64,000 nucleotides of DNA from Methanothermobacter sp. (GTDB lineage Archaea > Methanobacteriota > Methanobacteria > Methanobacteriales > DSM-23052). The notes beneath the pieces are model-generated. The model was given only the letters and a program-made list of their open reading frames with translations, had not been told where the DNA came from and did no database searches. How positions within the stretch are numbered: the stretch's first letter is position 1; each line of letters begins with the position of its first letter. The translations under genes and the position numbers were made by a program. Location of the stretch: contig JASFYN010000002.1 in NCBI GenBank assembly GCA_030055615.1, positions 1 to 64,000 of the forward strand, written 5' to 3'. Shown here piece after piece: positions 6,599 through 34,419 of this stretch.

Positions 6599-8458
6599 AT
6601 GGACTGGGATAAAATAGGGTTAAAGATGGGCTTGGAAATACACCAACAACTTGACAGCAAAGGGAAACTATTCTGTCCTTGTAAGTGCGAGTTAACAGAT
6701 GAAGAACCAGAATATAATATAATGAGAAGATTGAGGCCCACACAAAGCGAACTCGGTAAAATAGACAGAGCAGCCTTTGAAGAGGCTAAAAGGAAGCTCA
6801 AGTTCTATTATCAGGCTTATTCTGATCATACTTGTCTCGTGGAAGCCGATGAAGAGCCACCCCATCCCATAAATAGTGAGGCATTAGAGATTGCAGTGAC
6901 AATAGCATTACTCCTTAATATGAAAGTGGTTGACGAATTCCACACAATGAGAAAACAGGTAATAGATGGGAGCAACACTGGCGGATTCCAAAGAACAGGC
7001 CTTGTTGCCACAGATGGCTATGTTGAAACACCCCATGGCAGAGTAAAAATAGAAAACTTATGCCTTGAAGAGGATGCTGCAAGGAGAATAGAAGAAAAAG
7101 AAGATGGTATTGTCTTCCGCCTTGACAGGCTTGGCATACCACTCGTTGAGATAACAACAGACCCTTCAATCAAGGATCCAATCCAATTAAAAGAGGTGGC
7201 CTACCAGATAGGCCAGATACTCCGCAGCACCAAGGTTAAAAGGGGCATAGGGACCATAAGACAAGATCTTAACATTTCTATAAGGGATGGTGCAAGGGTC
7301 GAGGTCAAAGGAGTTCAAGACCTTAACCTAATACCTGAGATTGTTAAAAGAGAAGTTCAAAGACAACTAAAATTATTAGAGATACGTGAAAAACTCAAAA
7401 AGAGAAAAGCAAAGGTCGAGGATAAAATATACGATGTGGGGGAGATTTTCAAGGACACCAAATCAAAGATAATAAAAAGTGCTGAAAGCGTGCTCGCAAT
7501 AAAACTAGAAGGTTTCGCAGGACTCATAGGCATGGAACTCCAACCCAACAGGAGGCTTGGAACAGAACTAGCAGATTATGCCAAGAAAAGGGGCGTAGCT
7601 GGTATATTTCATACGGATGAGCTCCCAGCTTATGGTATAAGTAAAGAAGAAGTTGAAAAGCTAAAAGGACACCTAAAAGCAGGCGAAAATGATGCTATAA
7701 TAATCATAGCAGATGAAAGGAGAAAGGCAGAGGCAGCCCTAGAGGAAGTCGCATCACGGGCTAGGATGGCTCTTCAAGGTGTTCCAGAGGAGACAAGGAA
7801 AGCACTGGAAGATGGTAATACCTCCTACTTAAGACCATTACCTACAGCCAGTAGGATGTATGTGGAAACAGACATTCCCCTTTTCAAAATCGGCTCAGAG
7901 ATGATCGAAAGGTTAAAGGAGAAGCTTCCAGAGCTTCCTTCGGAAAAGAAAGAGAGAATAAAGAGAGAATATAATCTAAGTGAGGATTTGGCATCTCAGC
8001 TAGTCAAGAAGGGCCTTGCAGAGGATTTCGAAAAACTTGCCAAGTTAGATGTTGAAAACACTCTAGTAGCATCATTACTCGCCTACACCCTACAAGAGCT
8101 TAAAAGAGAAGGTTACAATATAGAAAATTTAAAACTCAAAGACCTTATGGGGGCTTTGAGATTATTAGAGGATGGTAAAGTTTCAAAGGACGCCCTAAAA
8201 GACATCATAGCATACATGGCAGATAATAGAGTTAAACCACTCAAAGCAGCTAAGGAACTAGATCTCCTACTTTTAAGCAGAGAAGAAGTAGAGAAGATAA
8301 TCCAAGAGATTATAGAAGAAAAAGAAGAGCTGATAAAAGAGAGGAAGATGGCAGCCATAGGCCCACTAATGGGAGAAGCCATGAAGAAATTAAGGGGAAA
8401 AGCCGATGGCAAATTCGTAAACCAAATACTTAAAGAGAAGATACAGGAAAAACTTTAA
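6599..8458 (+). CDS. gatE: Glu-tRNA(Gln) amidotransferase subunit E
   Basis: The 619-residue protein begins with the GatB/GatE kinase-like domain (MGLEIHQQL, then a CPC zinc-type motif). In the middle it has the AspRS-like GAD insertion that marks GatE, and it ends in YqeY-like helical domains that bind tRNA. It phosphorylates the gamma-carboxyl of Glu-tRNA(Gln) and transfers ammonia supplied by GatD. Length fits the family. It is the last gene of this plus-strand run; a T-rich tract follows. Confidence 0.95.
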
Positions 8459-8569
8459 GAGTTTTTTACTTTTTCATGTTTGATGGTCGATGATTCGTTA
8501 AATGCGCATGCTTCTGCACAGCCTCTTATATCGAATTCTCCGTGGGGTATTCCATCTATTTCATGGCTT
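8456..8569 (-). pseudogene. Short open frame without start codon, possible gene remnant
   Basis: Between gatE and the DUF2304 gene, one minus-strand frame is open for about 37 codons but has no ATG, GTG or TTG. It reads as a plausible hydrophilic peptide, including DGIPHGEFDIRGCAEACAF, and ends KVKNS. The frame is closed upstream by TGA at the end of the DUF2304 gene. It could be the 3' end of a decayed gene or chance. I do not recognise a family. Confidence 0.2.
8461..8477 (+). terminator. T-rich transcription end after gatE
   Basis: GTTTTTTACTTTTTC lies directly after the gatE stop on the plus strand, at the junction with the minus-strand genes that follow. It fits a U-tract archaeal terminator. 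Confidence 0.35.
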
Positions 8570-8900
8570 ATTCATCCTCTTCCAACTCTCTAAGCGCCAA
8601 TTCCCTGACCAGTTTTGTTATTTCCATTTCGAGGTTTTCTATCATGATATATATTCTGAAGAGCAAGTAGTAGGCTCCTATTATCGCTAATATAATGATC
8701 AGGTCTAGTCCACGACCAATCCCCATAATATTTGCAAGATATGATGTGGCGTTGGGGCTAATTGAAATTATGATTAGGGAACCCCATGCTAGAAGCCACA
8801 AGACGAAAACAGTCGGGGATGTTTTACCCTCTTTAAACCTCTTTATGGACAATATTATCCCTATCAGACCTGTTAATGTTCCTATGATCTGGTATAACAA
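8568..8900 (-). CDS. DUF2304 small membrane protein
   Basis: The 110-residue protein has three hydrophobic helices and a charged C-terminal helix ending LRELEEDE. It matches the DUF2304 layout, a family usually encoded next to polyprenyl-phosphate glycosyltransferases. I start it at TTG 8900 because AAGGTG lies 6 bases ahead of that codon; an in-frame GTG at 8909 overlaps the Shine-Dalgarno itself. It follows the glycosyltransferase by about 11 bases and probably forms a membrane complex with it. Confidence 0.75.
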   Translation of the reverse strand: MLYQIIGTLTGLIGIILSIKRFKEGKTSPTVFVLWLLAWGSLIIISISPNATSYLANIMGIGRGLDLIIILAIIGAYYLLFRIYIMIENLEMEITKLVRELALRELEEDE

Positions 8901-8911
8901 TCCTAGCACCT

Positions 8912-9622
8912 TTACAATTTTTTTAGTATGTTAACTATTAATTTGATCAATATTTTAATACCTATACTAAGGTTTGTGCCTTTTGATATAGTCTCTGGAG
9001 TGTATATAGTTTTTATAGGAATCTCTTCTAGTCTGAGACCCCTTCTTTTGATTTGACTTATTATCTCAGAAGACACACCATATCCTCTATCCTCTATTTT
9101 GATCTTGGAGGCTGCTTTGCGGGTGAATGCTCTCAAGCCGGATTGTGAATCAGAAACCCAAACACCATAAAATATTAAGGTTATTATGTTCATAAGAAAG
9201 TTTCCAATGTTCCTTGAAAATGGCATTTCACTAAAATTCCTTTTACCGATAACAGCATCTGCTTTATTGTCGATTAGTGGTCTGCAAACATTTTCTACAT
9301 CATCTGGGTCATGTTGTCCATCAGCATCAAATGTGACTATATAGGATGATCCCATGGAAAGGGCTGCCTCCATACCAGTTCTCAAAGCCGCTCCAAGCCC
9401 CCTATTTATTATATGCCTGTAAACATGGACTCTATCATCATCTTTGAATCTTCTGAGGAGATAGGGTGTTGAATCGGTTGAACCGTCATCTACGACAATA
9501 ATAGTATAACCTCTATCCTTTAGTTTGCCTAGAACCCGGAGTATTGTCTTTTCCTCGTTATATGCAGGTACAATAATGGTAACATCTTTTGGATTTGCCC
9601 TTTTTGCCATTGCCATTCCCAT
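8912..9622 (-). CDS. Family 2 glycosyltransferase, dolichyl-phosphate sugar synthase type
   Basis: The protein has the GT-A fold motifs of DPM1/DPG synthases: VTIIVPAYNEE at the N-terminus, VVDDGSTDST, and the FDADGQHDPDD metal-binding site. It lacks added C-terminal transmembrane helices. It would transfer a sugar from a nucleotide donor to a polyprenyl phosphate on the inner membrane face, supplying N-glycan or surface polymer synthesis. The start is uncertain: ATG 9622 has weak AAGG upstream, and in-frame GTG 9649 and ATG 9610 are alternatives. It is paired with the DUF2304 gene. Confidence 0.8.
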   Translation of the reverse strand: MGMAMAKRANPKDVTIIVPAYNEEKTILRVLGKLKDRGYTIIVVDDGSTDSTPYLLRRFKDDDRVHVYRHIINRGLGAALRTGMEAALSMGSSYIVTFDADGQHDPDDVENVCRPLIDNKADAVIGKRNFSEMPFSRNIGNFLMNIITLIFYGVWVSDSQSGLRAFTRKAASKIKIEDRGYGVSSEIISQIKRRGLRLEEIPIKTIYTPETISKGTNLSIGIKILIKLIVNILKKL

Positions 9623-21269: not shown

Positions 21270-21425
21270 CTATAACACCTAAAATCATATCTACTATGAA
21301 CAATAATTATAGATTATTAGTTAATATAATTTGTCCCCATAGCGCATGTAGATTAAACAAAAAAAAATAGAATTTTTCTAGTAAGCTGTTAAAACCTATA
21401 TTATTATCATATGGTGGGTGTTTTT

Positions 21426-22433
21426 ATGTTCAAGGATGTTGAAGAAATTGCTGATAAAGCGATGGAAGAACTTGCCAGGATGAACATAACATCTGGTTAT
21501 AGTGCAAGGGATAAAAGATTATGCCTACAAGACTTAAAATATCACCTAAAATATTTAAAGGCGGCCTTGGATTCCTCAAGTCCGCTATTATTCAATGATT
21601 ATGTGACATGGGCGGACATACTACTCAGAAGCATAGGATTGCCCAGGGAATGCCTAACAGCATCCCTAAAGGCACTAAAAATGGCCATGAAGGGGGTAAT
21701 AGACCCTAGATCATATGAAAAGGCATCTTCATATATTAGAATGGCCTTAGATCAACTAGAAGAAGTGCACGCCCCTAAAAGTTTCATAAGTGAAGATAAC
21801 CCCTTGAAAAGAGAAGCTGAGGACTATCTGAATCTATTGCTCAGTGCAGATACTGAAGGAGCCCATAAGCTGATAAAATCATTGATAGAAGCTGGTGTGA
21901 AAATCCCAGACATCTACCTAAACATATTTGAACCGGTTCAATATGAAATCGGCCGCCTATGGCAGATGAACATGATAACAGTAGCACATGAACATTATGC
22001 CACAGGAGTCACCCAGATGATAATCGCCGAACTCTACCCTTATATCCTAGAATATTCTGAGAAAACCGGTAAAAGACTAGTAGCAACTTGTATAAACAAT
22101 GAACTCCACGAACTCGGCCTTAGAATAGTATCCGATTTCTTTGAGATGAACGGATGGGATTCAATATACCTTGGAGCTAACACTCCACAAGATAGCATAA
22201 TAAAGATAATCCAGGAACATAAACCAGAACTTTTAGCAATATCAGCTACCATAACATATAACATTAGCCATGTACGAAAACTCGTAGAAAGAGTGAAAAA
22301 ATTAGAAAATCCACCAAAGATAATGGTAGGAGGCCACCCGTTCAATATCGATCCGGACCTCTGGAGAAAGGTGGGGGCGGACCTTCATGCCACGAACGCT
22401 TCTATGGCTGTTAAAATAGTGGAAAGGTTATGA
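21426..22433 (+). CDS. B12-binding sensor protein with CarH-type W-x9-E-H motif
   Basis: The 335-residue protein has three parts. A helical N-terminal domain (about 1-130) contains FNDYVTW. A four-helix cap (about 131-205) carries W179, E189 and H190, the Wx9EH signature of CarH-type adenosylcobalamin photoreceptors. A Rossmann B12-binding domain (about 215-335) carries ELHELG with H228 as lower axial ligand, replacing the usual DxHxxG. No catalytic or DNA-binding domain is present. It starts at ATG 21426 after GGTGGGTG. Its stop overlaps the start of a histidine kinase, so it probably senses B12 state or light for that kinase. Assignment to light sensing is inference. Confidence 0.85.
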
Positions 22434-23497
22434 TTATGGAAGAAATCGTTAAAGGTTTTGTAGCGGTCACTGACAGACAAGGTTGCCTTAAGAGGATAAT
22501 AGATTATGGGATGGACATACCATTCAAGAAAGGCGAATTATTCACAGAAATCATAGACATAGAGAGCAGGGCGAAAGCATCAGCCTTCCTTGACAAAATA
22601 ATAAGCGGGGATGCAATATTTGATTGGGAGATGAACATCACACTCAAAAATAGGACAAAGACCCTCCATTTTTCAGGGTTTAAAGTTAATGATGAAATTT
22701 TTATTGTAGCTGCAGAGAACCGGAGTGAAATGATAAAAATCTACAAGCTACTAGAAGATGACATGCCACTCATAAAGCCAAGAGTCTATAGGAAGATAAA
22801 AGATGAAAAATTGGTGTTTGATGAATTAACACGACTAAACAACCAACTTACATTGGCAAAGCGTGAACTTATAAAAAAGAACCTTGAACTAGAAAAAGCC
22901 CTCCAAGAGAAGGACATGCTCATAAGAGAGATCAATCATCGGGTTAAAAACGATCTTATGATAATCTCAAGCCTTCTTAACTTGCAAGCAAAATATGTTA
23001 AAGACAAGGAGGATCTGATCCTTTTTAAGGAGGCTCAAGCGCGGGCCAAATCCATGGCGATGCTCCATGAAAAATTATATCAATCAGGAAAATATCGAAG
23101 CATAGAATTTGGAGAATACCTCAAGGGTCTTCTAAGAGATTTATATTATGCATTCGTCCCACAACCCGGGGAGATAGGCCTTGAAATGGATATAGAAGAT
23201 GTGGAACTTGATGTGAAATTTGCCATGCCACTTGCATTAATCGTAAACGAACTTTTCACTAATGCAATAAAGCATGCGTTTCCAGATGGGAAGGGCACTA
23301 TAAAAGTCACTTTCAAAAGAAAGGATGGATACTATATTCTGGTAGTGTCAGATGATGGTATAGGCCTGCCAGAAGATTTCGATTTAAATAAAAAATTCGG
23401 GTTATCGATAGTTAACGCCTTGACGAAGCAGATAGGTGGTGAACTTTCAGTAGACTCTAATAATGGAACCAGTTTCATGGTAAAATTTAAGGAGTAG
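22430..23497 (+). CDS. Sensor histidine kinase, HisKA_2 family
   Basis: The 355-residue cytoplasmic protein has no membrane helices. Residues 1-110 look like a PAS-type sensor. A coiled coil (about 130-165) leads into the HisKA_2 phosphoacceptor box [16 protein letters not shown] with His170. The HATPase domain has [12 protein letters not shown] and DDGIGLPED. It autophosphorylates and would pass phosphate to a response regulator not present in the window. The ATG overlaps the B12 sensor stop (TTATGATTATG), so the two are coupled; ATG 22436 is an alternative start. Confidence 0.9.
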
Positions 23498-23505
23498 AAC
23501 AGCCG

Positions 23506-23904
23506 ATGGTATCATTATGTTTGCTTGCAGTTAGGGCTTTCATAAAGGATAATAAAGGCAGGATCCTCATAATAAAAAGGTCTCCCCTTTGTAAGACTAA
23601 TCCTCTTAGGTGGGAGTTGCCAGGTGGCAAAGTAAACATAGGTGAGCCCCTCGAGGAAGCCCTTAAAAGGGAAGTTAAAGAAGAAACAGGATTAAATGTA
23701 ACTCCTAATAGTGTCTTGGGAGTTGCTGAACAAGAATTAGCCATTTTTAAGGCTGTCCATATTATAATTGAATGTTCTGCCAATGGTAAACTAAGATTAA
23801 GTGGTGAGCATATAGCATATGCTTGGGTGAAACAAGAAGATCTCAAATATTATGAACTAACAGACTGGTTTTACAATTTCATCAAATCAACAGATTCGCC
23901 ATGA
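23506..23904 (+). CDS. NUDIX hydrolase
   Basis: The 132-residue protein has the full Nudix box GGKVNIGEPLEEALKREV followed by KEETGL, matching Gx5Ex7REUxEExGU. It would hydrolyse a nucleoside diphosphate linked to another group; the substrate cannot be read from sequence. It follows the histidine kinase after 8 bases, so it may be in the same transcript. Confidence 0.88.
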   Translation: MVSLCLLAVRAFIKDNKGRILIIKRSPLCKTNPLRWELPGGKVNIGEPLEEALKREVKEETGLNVTPNSVLGVAEQELAIFKAVHIIIECSANGKLRLSGEHIAYAWVKQEDLKYYELTDWFYNFIKSTDSP

Positions 23905-33111: not shown

Positions 33112-33627
33112 ATGGATACAAGGATTCTATCAATTATGGTATTATGTGTGTTAGTGGTGGGTGTATTTGCAGTTGCAGCAGAAAATAAAACAACAAATCA
33201 GTCAATAGGGAACAAATCAAACATTACAAATAATACCACTAATGTACAACCACTTTCGGTTTGGACATCTGTTAGTGTAACCCCTTCTACTTTAAATCTT
33301 GGGACGATAGCCCCTGATGGCATAGAAAGGAGTTATCCAAATGCTGCAACTGTAACAGTCACATATTTTTTGGCATATAATGATCGTCTTTCTGTAAGGG
33401 CGAGTGGTGATTTAGTAAATGCCAATGGTTCGACGATCCCATTATCGAATCTTAAGTTCAGCACCTCTAACATTGCTAAAAGATCATTCACAACATCAGA
33501 TTATACCATATTAACTTATAGTGGACTTTGGGGCTCTCAAACGGTCCCTATGAACTTTTATATTACTATACCAGTTTTCACTGATCCTGGCACCTACTCT
33601 GTGACTATAATCTATACAGCAACTTAA
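33112..33627 (+). CDS. Exported surface protein, copy 1 of a tandem pair
   Basis: The 171-residue protein has a hydrophobic signal segment (about 4-22), an Asn/Thr/Ser-rich linker likely to be glycosylated, and a beta-sandwich ending PGTYSVTIIYTAT. SVTPSTLNLGTIAPDGIERS starts the folded part. The design resembles WxL-type or pilin-like beta proteins of Gram-positive cells, without the WxL motif itself. GGGGGGTATC precedes the ATG. Its 5' part is almost identical to the next gene. Confidence 0.75.
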   Translation: MDTRILSIMVLCVLVVGVFAVAAENKTTNQSIGNKSNITNNTTNVQPLSVWTSVSVTPSTLNLGTIAPDGIERSYPNAATVTVTYFLAYNDRLSVRASGDLVNANGSTIPLSNLKFSTSNIAKRSFTTSDYTILTYSGLWGSQTVPMNFYITIPVFTDPGTYSVTIIYTAT

Positions 33628-33912
33628 AAGAACGGATTTACCAAAAAAGATCACGAAAATAGAACCACCCAGAGGAGGCGGCGAAATATAGCCCCCCATA
33701 GTAAAAAAGATATTCAAATTTTCACATAAGATGTTTAGGGGGGGATCCCACTGTTGGGAGAGTGGATGAGTGTGATGTCCCCCCCACACCAATGTTTTGC
33801 TATCTTTTGGGGGAGGTTATGTTAAATAGACTAAGGTGGGAGGGGAAGATCCTTTAATCACCAAAAGATTTTAACAATGAGTGAAAGCATATAAGAAATT
33901 TGGGGGGATCAG
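33628..33912. other. Gap between tandem surface protein genes
   Basis: This 285-base gap has no convincing gene. It contains G- and C-rich blocks (CCCCCCAT, GGGGGGGATCC, CCCCCCCAC) that could pair to form RNA structure, set in AT-rich DNA. GGGGGGATC at the end is the ribosome binding site of the next gene. Confidence 0.5.
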
Positions 33913-34419
33913 ATGGATCCAAAAGTTTTATCTCTTGTGATATTATTTGTGTTCGTGGTTGGAGCTTTTGCAGTTGCAGCAGAAAATAAAACAACAAATC
34001 AGTCAATAGGGAACGAATCAAACATTACAAATAATACGATAAAGATACAGCCACTATCAGCGCGGGTAAGTGTTAATGTAACCCCTACGGTCGTATATTT
34101 CGGAACAGTACCCCCTGATGGCATTGAAAGGAGCTACCCAAATGCTGCGACGGTAATAATAGATCACCAGGGGGCTAGCGATTTCTATGTGAGAGCAAAT
34201 GGCAATCTAGTAAGTGATAGTGGCTTAGAGATTCCAATATCATACCTTAAGTTTAGCACACCTAATTCCCCCATAAGACCATTTACAACAGAAAATCAAT
34301 GGATATCAAAATATCCAGGGAGTGGAGTTGAAAGGATTCCTATAAATTTTTATATCACGATACCCACTTACACTGATCCTGGTACATATTCTGCGACTAT
34401 AATATATACAGCAACTTAA
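33913..34419 (+). CDS. Exported surface protein, copy 2 of a tandem pair
   Basis: The 168-residue protein is a paralogue of the preceding one, with the same signal segment, Asn/Thr-rich linker, PPDGIERSYPNAATV segment and C-terminal PGTYSATIIYTAT. The first 45 codons are nearly identical at the DNA level between copies, while the beta domain has diverged. This points to duplication with later gene conversion or selection on the export and linker part. Likely displayed on the outside of the cell wall or membrane. Confidence 0.75.
   Translation: MDPKVLSLVILFVFVVGAFAVAAENKTTNQSIGNESNITNNTIKIQPLSARVSVNVTPTVVYFGTVPPDGIERSYPNAATVIIDHQGASDFYVRANGNLVSDSGLEIPISYLKFSTPNSPIRPFTTENQWISKYPGSGVERIPINFYITIPTYTDPGTYSATIIYTAT

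What the first reader, a model, noticed from the sequence alone, without database searches (positions are those of the whole stretch)
21426..23497. B12-binding sensor with CarH-type light-sensing motif coupled to a HisKA_2 kinase in a methanogen
The protein at 21426 carries W179 followed nine residues later by E189-H190 in its four-helix cap, the Wx9EH signature of CarH adenosylcobalamin photoreceptors, and H228 in ELHELG as probable lower ligand. It has no methyltransferase or DNA-binding domain. Its stop overlaps the start of a soluble HisKA_2 histidine kinase. A B12-based light, redox or cobalamin-status sensor that signals through a kinase would be distinct from CarH, which acts directly on DNA. 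The organism also has a cobalt uptake operon 9 kb away, so cobalamin status is a plausible input.
Basis: partly seen in the sequence, partly recalled or inferred. Interest (0 to 1): 0.75.

Follow-up and report, generated by a model that had tools for sequence, protein, structure and literature searches.

The report
Methanogen B12-plus-phycobilin-type light sensor
A dark-living, oxygen-hating methane producer carries a two-part sensor, a vitamin-B12 light-switch domain joined to a domain like the pigment-binding proteins of cyanobacteria and paired with a signalling kinase, although its genome has no recognised enzyme for making the pigment.

Summary
ORF 21426-22433 (335 aa) ends in a CarH-like B12 domain with W179, E189-H190 and H228, and its stop overlaps a PAS-HisKA_2-HATPase kinase (22430-23497) by 4 bp. 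Residues ~5-115 form a phycobiliprotein-like globin ("photoglobin"). Its nearest solved relatives are therefore the photocobilins (B12 plus biliverdin photoreceptors), not CarH. The biliverdin contacts of SasPcob (Asp270, Trp296) are D36 and W62 here, invariant in 15 homologues. All intact archaeal copies also keep C33, which aligns with the phycobiliprotein chromophore cysteine.

The pairing is real. In 151 genomes of the order, the kinase's PAS module occurs in exactly the 13 genomes with an undecayed B12 gene, always beside it. One sister genome lost both genes through a single deletion. Bacteria pair the same receptor with HisKA kinases that share the PAS and coiled coil. In Methanobacteriaceae-type genomes the receptor is split into two genes beside the kinase.

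Best reading: a photocobilin-type receptor controlling a kinase in trans. Light as the natural signal is inferred. No heme oxygenase was found (0/150 genomes) and no known corrinoid adenosyltransferase in this genome, so both chromophore supplies are open.

The parts
21426..22433 (+). photoglobin-B12 receptor gene (335 aa); alternative in-frame start at 21411
21438..21770 (+). photoglobin domain, residues ~5-115: five helices, C33-L34-Q35-D36 (CxQD) and W62
   Evidence: Phycobilisome Pfam hit; phmmer of the isolated domain to ApcB3 1.1e-5 and AbPcob 3e-4; AlphaFold model pLDDT 91
21807..22058 (+). four-helix cap of the B12 domain (residues ~128-211) with G176, W179, E189-H190; Q180 stands where CarH has H132
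   Evidence: PF02607; alignment to SasPcob and CtMerR
22074..22430 (+). Rossmann B12-binding domain (residues 217-335) with the E226-x-H228-x-x-G231 lower-ligand motif and LGANTP
   Evidence: PF02310 E 1.5e-25; Foldseek to photocobilins and CarH
22430..23497 (+). soluble histidine kinase, 355 aa: PAS-like (1-112), coiled coil (125-160), HisKA_2 with phospho-acceptor H170, HATPase_c
22430..22915 (+). partner module: PAS-like domain plus coiled coil, found only in kinases beside the receptor gene in this order

Best explanation
The two genes encode a photocobilin-type receptor split from its output. The receptor has a phycobiliprotein-like globin followed by a CarH-like cobalamin domain. It probably binds a base-off, His228-on cobamide whose adenosyl group packs against W179, E189 and H190. 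The globin, docked over the corrin edge, may hold a linear tetrapyrrole on D36, W62 and C33. Light that cleaves the Co-C bond (or another change at the upper ligand) would shift the E189-H190 helix and the dimer state. That change would be passed in trans to the PAS and coiled coil of the adjacent HisKA_2 kinase, which would then phosphorylate one of the cell's two response regulators. Shown by computation: domains, residues, homology to photocobilins, pairing and joint loss with the kinase. Inferred: ligands, light as the signal, direct contact, direction of the response.
For: Best solved relatives by profile are the photocobilins 8j2w/8j2x (E 1e-39) and 8j2y (5e-33), each matched over both domains; CarH is far weaker (8e-9). 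Model pLDDT 91; its B12 part overlays SasPcob at 1.7 A over 208 columns. W179, E189, H190, H228, D36 and W62 are invariant from Methanothermobacter-type archaea to Azospirillum, Paenibacillus and Bacteroidota. D36 aligns with SasPcob Asp270 and with the His that replaces it in AbPcob. The PAS module occurs in 13 of 151 genomes, the same 13 with an undecayed receptor gene and always beside it. In G003 one deletion fuses and kills both genes. Archaeal and bacterial partner kinases share PAS plus coil (hhalign E 6e-31; unrelated PAS controls E > 0.05), though the catalytic cores differ, HisKA_2 against HisKA. Standalone photocobilins act in trans on partner enzymes (PMC10979010). Both genes are under purifying selection (dN/dS 0.14).
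Against: No heme oxygenase in 150 genomes of the order, and no recognised corrinoid adenosyltransferase of two families in this genome, so neither chromophore supply is accounted for. The organism is probably an anaerobe of dark habitats (inference). Of the published light signature GxxW/EH/GxxH/GxxxP, GxxH reads NxxH in all archaeal full-length members. No binding, spectral or kinase data. The monomer model says nothing about docking to the kinase.
Confidence: 0.62

Rival explanations
1. A dark cobamide-status or redox sensor: the same receptor and kinase report whether adenosyl-, methyl- or base-only cobamide is bound, and the globin is a structural cap without pigment.
For: No heme oxygenase in the order. 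cbiMNQO lies 8.6 kb away here and about 4 kb away in the f3 genomes. AbPcob shows that the globin can persist with little biliverdin binding (PMC10979010). Cobamides are central to methanogenesis (general knowledge).
Against: D36, W62 and C33 are kept in every intact archaeal copy (G150 also reads CMQD), which a mere cap would not need. The whole adenosyl pocket is kept, yet no known adenosyltransferase was found in the genome.
Confidence: 0.27
2. A corrinoid methyl-transfer protein (MtmC/MtaC/MtgC-like) whose neighbour kinase is incidental.
For: NCBIfam corrinoid models MtgC and pyl_corrinoid score slightly above CarH, and MtmC shares the fold.
Against: All those scores are far below the families' cut-offs (63 of 370 bits, for example). 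The corrinoid-type relative 4jgi lacks W179 and E189-H190 at the aligned sites. No methyltransferase gene lies next to it. Co-occurrence with the PAS kinase is exact.
Confidence: 0.03
3. A relic inherited from bacteria that no longer senses light, under decay in the group.
For: Decayed in G003, absent from G001, B12 gene frameshifted in G150, kinase split in G146.
Against: dN/dS 0.136 for both genes between the two intact species of the genus, like neighbouring genes. Signature residues are fully kept. Most undecayed f1/f3 loci have both genes as whole ORFs.
Confidence: 0.08

Closest known systems
Photocobilins SasPcob (8J2W/8J2X) and AbDPcob (8J2Y), PMC10979010
   Same: CarH-like B12 domain with Wx9EH and E/DxH, plus a phycobiliprotein-like globin; Asp270 and Trp296 equivalents kept; Q instead of CarH His132, as in SasPcob; can act on partners in trans
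   Different: domain order reversed (globin first); has the CxQD cysteine that SasPcob lacks; partner is a PAS-HisKA_2 kinase; archaeal host without heme oxygenase
Photoglobins (Schneider et al. 2022, not readable here; cited in PMC10151467)
   Same: globin fused to a B12-binding domain, CXQD motif, proposed sensor for signal transduction
   Different: whether archaeal members or this kinase pairing were listed there could not be checked
CarH (Thermus thermophilus, 5C8D)
   Same: adenosyl pocket W131/E141/H142 and lower ligand H177 correspond to W179/E189/H190/H228
   Different: no MerR DNA-binding domain, no His132 equivalent, extra globin domain, output through a kinase
CtMerR cobalamin domain (8JBS/8JBT, PMC11796333)
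   Same: closest single-domain fold match (E 3e-12) with the same W, EH and H
   Different: fused to a MerR-type DNA-binding domain, no globin
BBAG-2 globins next to B12-binding proteins (PMC10151467)
   Same: the Methanobacteriaceae-type version also has a separate globin gene beside a separate B12 gene
   Different: no bilin reductase or heme oxygenase seen nearby; no RGMC cysteine motif
EL346 blue-light HisKA_2 kinase (4R3A)
   Same: soluble light-type kinase with the closest HisKA_2/HATPase fold
   Different: light is sensed by its own LOV domain, not by a separate receptor protein

Membership tests
photocobilin | CarH-like B12 domain with W-x9-EH and E/DxH lower-ligand motif | tested here: met
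   W179, E189-H190, E226-x-H228; invariant in 15 homologues
photocobilin | phycobiliprotein-like globin on the same chain | tested here: met
   residues ~5-115
photocobilin | bilin contacts Asp270 and Trp296 | tested here: met
   D36 and W62
photocobilin | binds AdoCbl and biliverdin, photolysed by green and red light | not testable with these tools
   needs protein; heme oxygenase absent from the order
photoglobin | CXQD motif | tested here: met
   C33-L34-Q35-D36
CarH | adenosyl pocket W131/E141/H142 and lower ligand H177 | tested here: met
   W179/E189/H190/H228
CarH | MerR DNA-binding domain | tested here: not met
   no such Pfam hit; N-terminus is a globin
CarH | His132 for bis-His light state | tested here: not met
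   Q180; SasPcob also lacks it
SignatureFinder light-responsive B12 domain | GxxW, EH, GxxH and GxxxP | tested here: inconclusive
   three of four met; GxxH is NxxH (N225) in archaeal full-length members, GxxH in most bacterial relatives and in the split archaeal version
HisKA_2 histidine kinase | phospho-acceptor His and ATPase N and G boxes | tested here: met
   Pfam above cut-off; H170, N278, D308 kept
corrinoid methyltransfer protein | scores above curated family cut-off | tested here: not met
   63 of 370 bits for MtgC, 57 of 215 for pyl_corrinoid

The most novel reading that the evidence does not exclude
An archaeal photocobilin in strictly anaerobic hydrogenotrophic methanogens that attaches a linear tetrapyrrole through the phycobiliprotein-type cysteine C33, the pigment being made without oxygen and without heme oxygenase by an unknown route, and that signals through a kinase.
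Probability: 0.17. Interest if true: 0.88.

Novelty: new variant of a known kind. Interest (0 to 1): 0.62.

Why it matters
It puts a phycobiliprotein-like, probably light-sensing module in methanogens, which are not thought of as light-responsive. It also poses two testable puzzles: where an anaerobe without heme oxygenase would get a bilin, and how a genome without known adenosyltransferases would supply adenosylcobamide. The exact pairing with a PAS kinase, and the use of the same PAS-coil module with two different kinase cores in archaea and bacteria, suggests how B12 photoreceptors plug into two-component signalling and offers a thermophilic starting point for red/green optogenetic kinases.

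Tried and rejected
Receptor-kinase fusion in Azospirillum oleiclasticum: my first ORF call suggested it, but re-reading showed two overlapping genes, 7806-8963 and 8960-. Corrinoid methyltransfer protein: rejected on cut-offs, missing W/EH and genetic context. AhbD heme synthase and HutW anaerobic heme-opening enzyme: only below-cut-off radical SAM matches, so neither is claimed. The tree makes the archaeal full-length proteins one clade (98/100) but leaves deeper order open, so a transfer from bacteria is not shown. Foldseek does not align the globin because the domain order is reversed, so the globin rests on sequence profiles and the model's helices.

Full report
WHAT IS THERE. Two overlapping genes lie at 21426-22433 and 22430-23497 on the + strand. 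The second is a soluble kinase: an N-terminal PAS-like fold (strands and helices 9-111 in the model), a coiled coil, HisKA_2 with H170, and HATPase_c. The PAS assignment rests on the order of secondary structure; the model is of moderate quality there (pLDDT about 85, whole-chain pTM 0.51).

THE MISSED DOMAIN. Residues ~5-115 are a phycobiliprotein-like globin. The Pfam Phycobilisome model just misses its cut-off for this protein (22.1 of 22.2 bits) but is matched by 14 of 15 homologues at E <= 0.05, best E 4.6e-9. The isolated domain finds ApcB3 (1.1e-5), allophycocyanins and AbPcob (3e-4) among solved structures, and the family profile finds smURFP at 5e-8. In these alignments C33 falls on the phycobiliprotein chromophore cysteine (CIRD against CLQD) and D36 on its aspartate. 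The PNAS 2023 study states that photoglobins carry a CXQD motif (PMC10151467). D36 aligns with SasPcob Asp270, the main biliverdin contact. The numbering offset of 6 is supported by AbPcob, whose residue at that position is the His that the authors report there. W62 aligns with Trp296. D36 and W62 are invariant in archaea and bacteria; C33 is kept in all intact archaeal copies and in Azospirillum but not in Paenibacillus or Bacteroidota.

NEAREST RELATIVES. The profile of 15 homologues ranks the photocobilins first (1e-39 and 5e-33), CtMerR next (5e-23) and CarH far behind (8e-9). The AlphaFold model is confident (pLDDT 91.4, pTM 0.85), and its B12 part overlays SasPcob at 1.7 A. Fold alone does not separate light sensors from corrinoid methyl carriers (MtmC also matches). 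The W/EH residues do: the corrinoid-type protein 4jgi has F and DL at those sites. CarH's His132 is Q180 here. SasPcob has Q too, and its light state is water/hydroxide-ligated rather than bis-His (PMC10979010).

DISTRIBUTION AND PAIRING. The kinase's PAS-coil module, searched alone, occurs in 13 genomes: exactly those 14 minus the decayed one, one kinase per genome and always beside the receptor. This covers three families, so the events are fewer than the genomes, but there is no exception. In G003 a deletion joins receptor residue ~197 to kinase residue ~239, with in-frame stops, removing both functions together. In f2 genomes the B12 protein (225-232 aa) is followed by a separate globin (141-142 aa; interrupted in G007) and then the kinase; the separate globin matches the photoglobin profile (hhalign probability 90%, E 1.5e-6; control against the B12 domain 0.1%).

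BACTERIAL COUNTERPARTS. Full-length relatives with the same domain order (35-44% identity) occur in Paenibacillus, Bacteroidota MAGs and Azospirillum, and a more distant one in Ilyobacter (32%). They sit next to HisKA kinases in Paenibacillus, three Bacteroidota and Azospirillum, next to a GGDEF gene in Ilyobacter, and without a kinase partner directly downstream in Skermanella and one Bacteroidota. Archaeal and bacterial partner kinases share the PAS-coil module (hhalign E 6e-31, against E > 0.05 for two unrelated PAS domains of the same genome), while the catalytic core is HisKA_2 in archaea and HisKA in bacteria. Paenibacillus keeps only the coil. The conserved thing is thus receptor plus PAS-coil, which suggests, but does not show, that this module is the docking or input surface.

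OUTPUT. The genome has seven HisKA_2 kinases but only two response regulators: receiver-PAS-GAF, and receiver-PAS-MetOD1 (methanogen output domain 1) next to a KaiC-like ATPase. Neither has a recognised DNA-binding domain, so the output may not be direct transcription control.

CHROMOPHORE SUPPLY. Heme oxygenase (PF01126) is absent from 150 genomes while the controls ring. Neither PduO-type (PF01923) nor CobA-type (PF02572) adenosyltransferase is found in the window's genome; both searches are also silent in Methanocaldococcus jannaschii among the controls, so an unrecognised enzyme in such methanogens is possible. Scavenged biliverdin, another tetrapyrrole, or an empty pocket cannot be told apart here.

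MECHANISM AND CONFIDENCE. Shown: domains, residues, homology, pairing, joint loss, purifying selection (dN/dS 0.136 for both genes). Inferred: cobamide and bilin binding, Co-C photolysis as the switch, signalling in trans to the kinase, phosphotransfer to one of the two regulators. The claim 'photocobilin-type receptor working with this kinase' I hold at about 0.85. That light is the physiological signal I hold at about 0.6.

NOVELTY. Photoglobins and photocobilins are known in bacteria. I found no paper in the library on archaeal members, but the key 2022 survey was not readable. New here, as far as these tools show: methanogen members, the exact kinase pairing with a shared PAS-coil and swapped core, the split three-gene version, and retention of the chromophore cysteine without heme oxygenase. 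That the host is a methanogen is inferred from its relatives and the MetOD1 domain, not tested by a search for methyl-coenzyme M reductase.

Noticed in passing
G003:C1 (L024:5791-6726): Sister genome with the receptor and kinase genes fused and truncated by one deletion plus in-frame stops.
   Followed up: yes
L033:4354-6881 (G137): Upstream of the split B12/globin/kinase genes lie STAS-like, RsbW-like, PP2C-like and further HisKA_2-like kinase genes, resembling a partner-switching stress module (judged from sequence, not scanned).
   Followed up: no
L038:1486-3328 (own genome C3): One of only two response regulators carries MetOD1 and abuts a KaiC-like ATPase gene; possibly a KaiC-linked phosphorelay in a methanogen.
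   Followed up: no
G000:C2:208825-210332: An AhbD-like radical SAM match (211 bits, below the 500-bit cut-off) lies directly before a strong B12-binding domain hit; function unclear.
   Followed up: no
window 23506-23904: A NUDIX hydrolase gene follows the kinase in the window's genus and in all f3 genomes, and survives in G003 where the pair is lost, so it is probably independent.
   Followed up: partly
own genome: Neither PF01923 nor PF02572 corrinoid adenosyltransferase is found, although a cobalt uptake operon is present.
   Followed up: partly
window 33112-34419: Two tandem, closely similar small secreted-type proteins (171 and 168 aa); no Pfam match for the one scanned.
   Followed up: no
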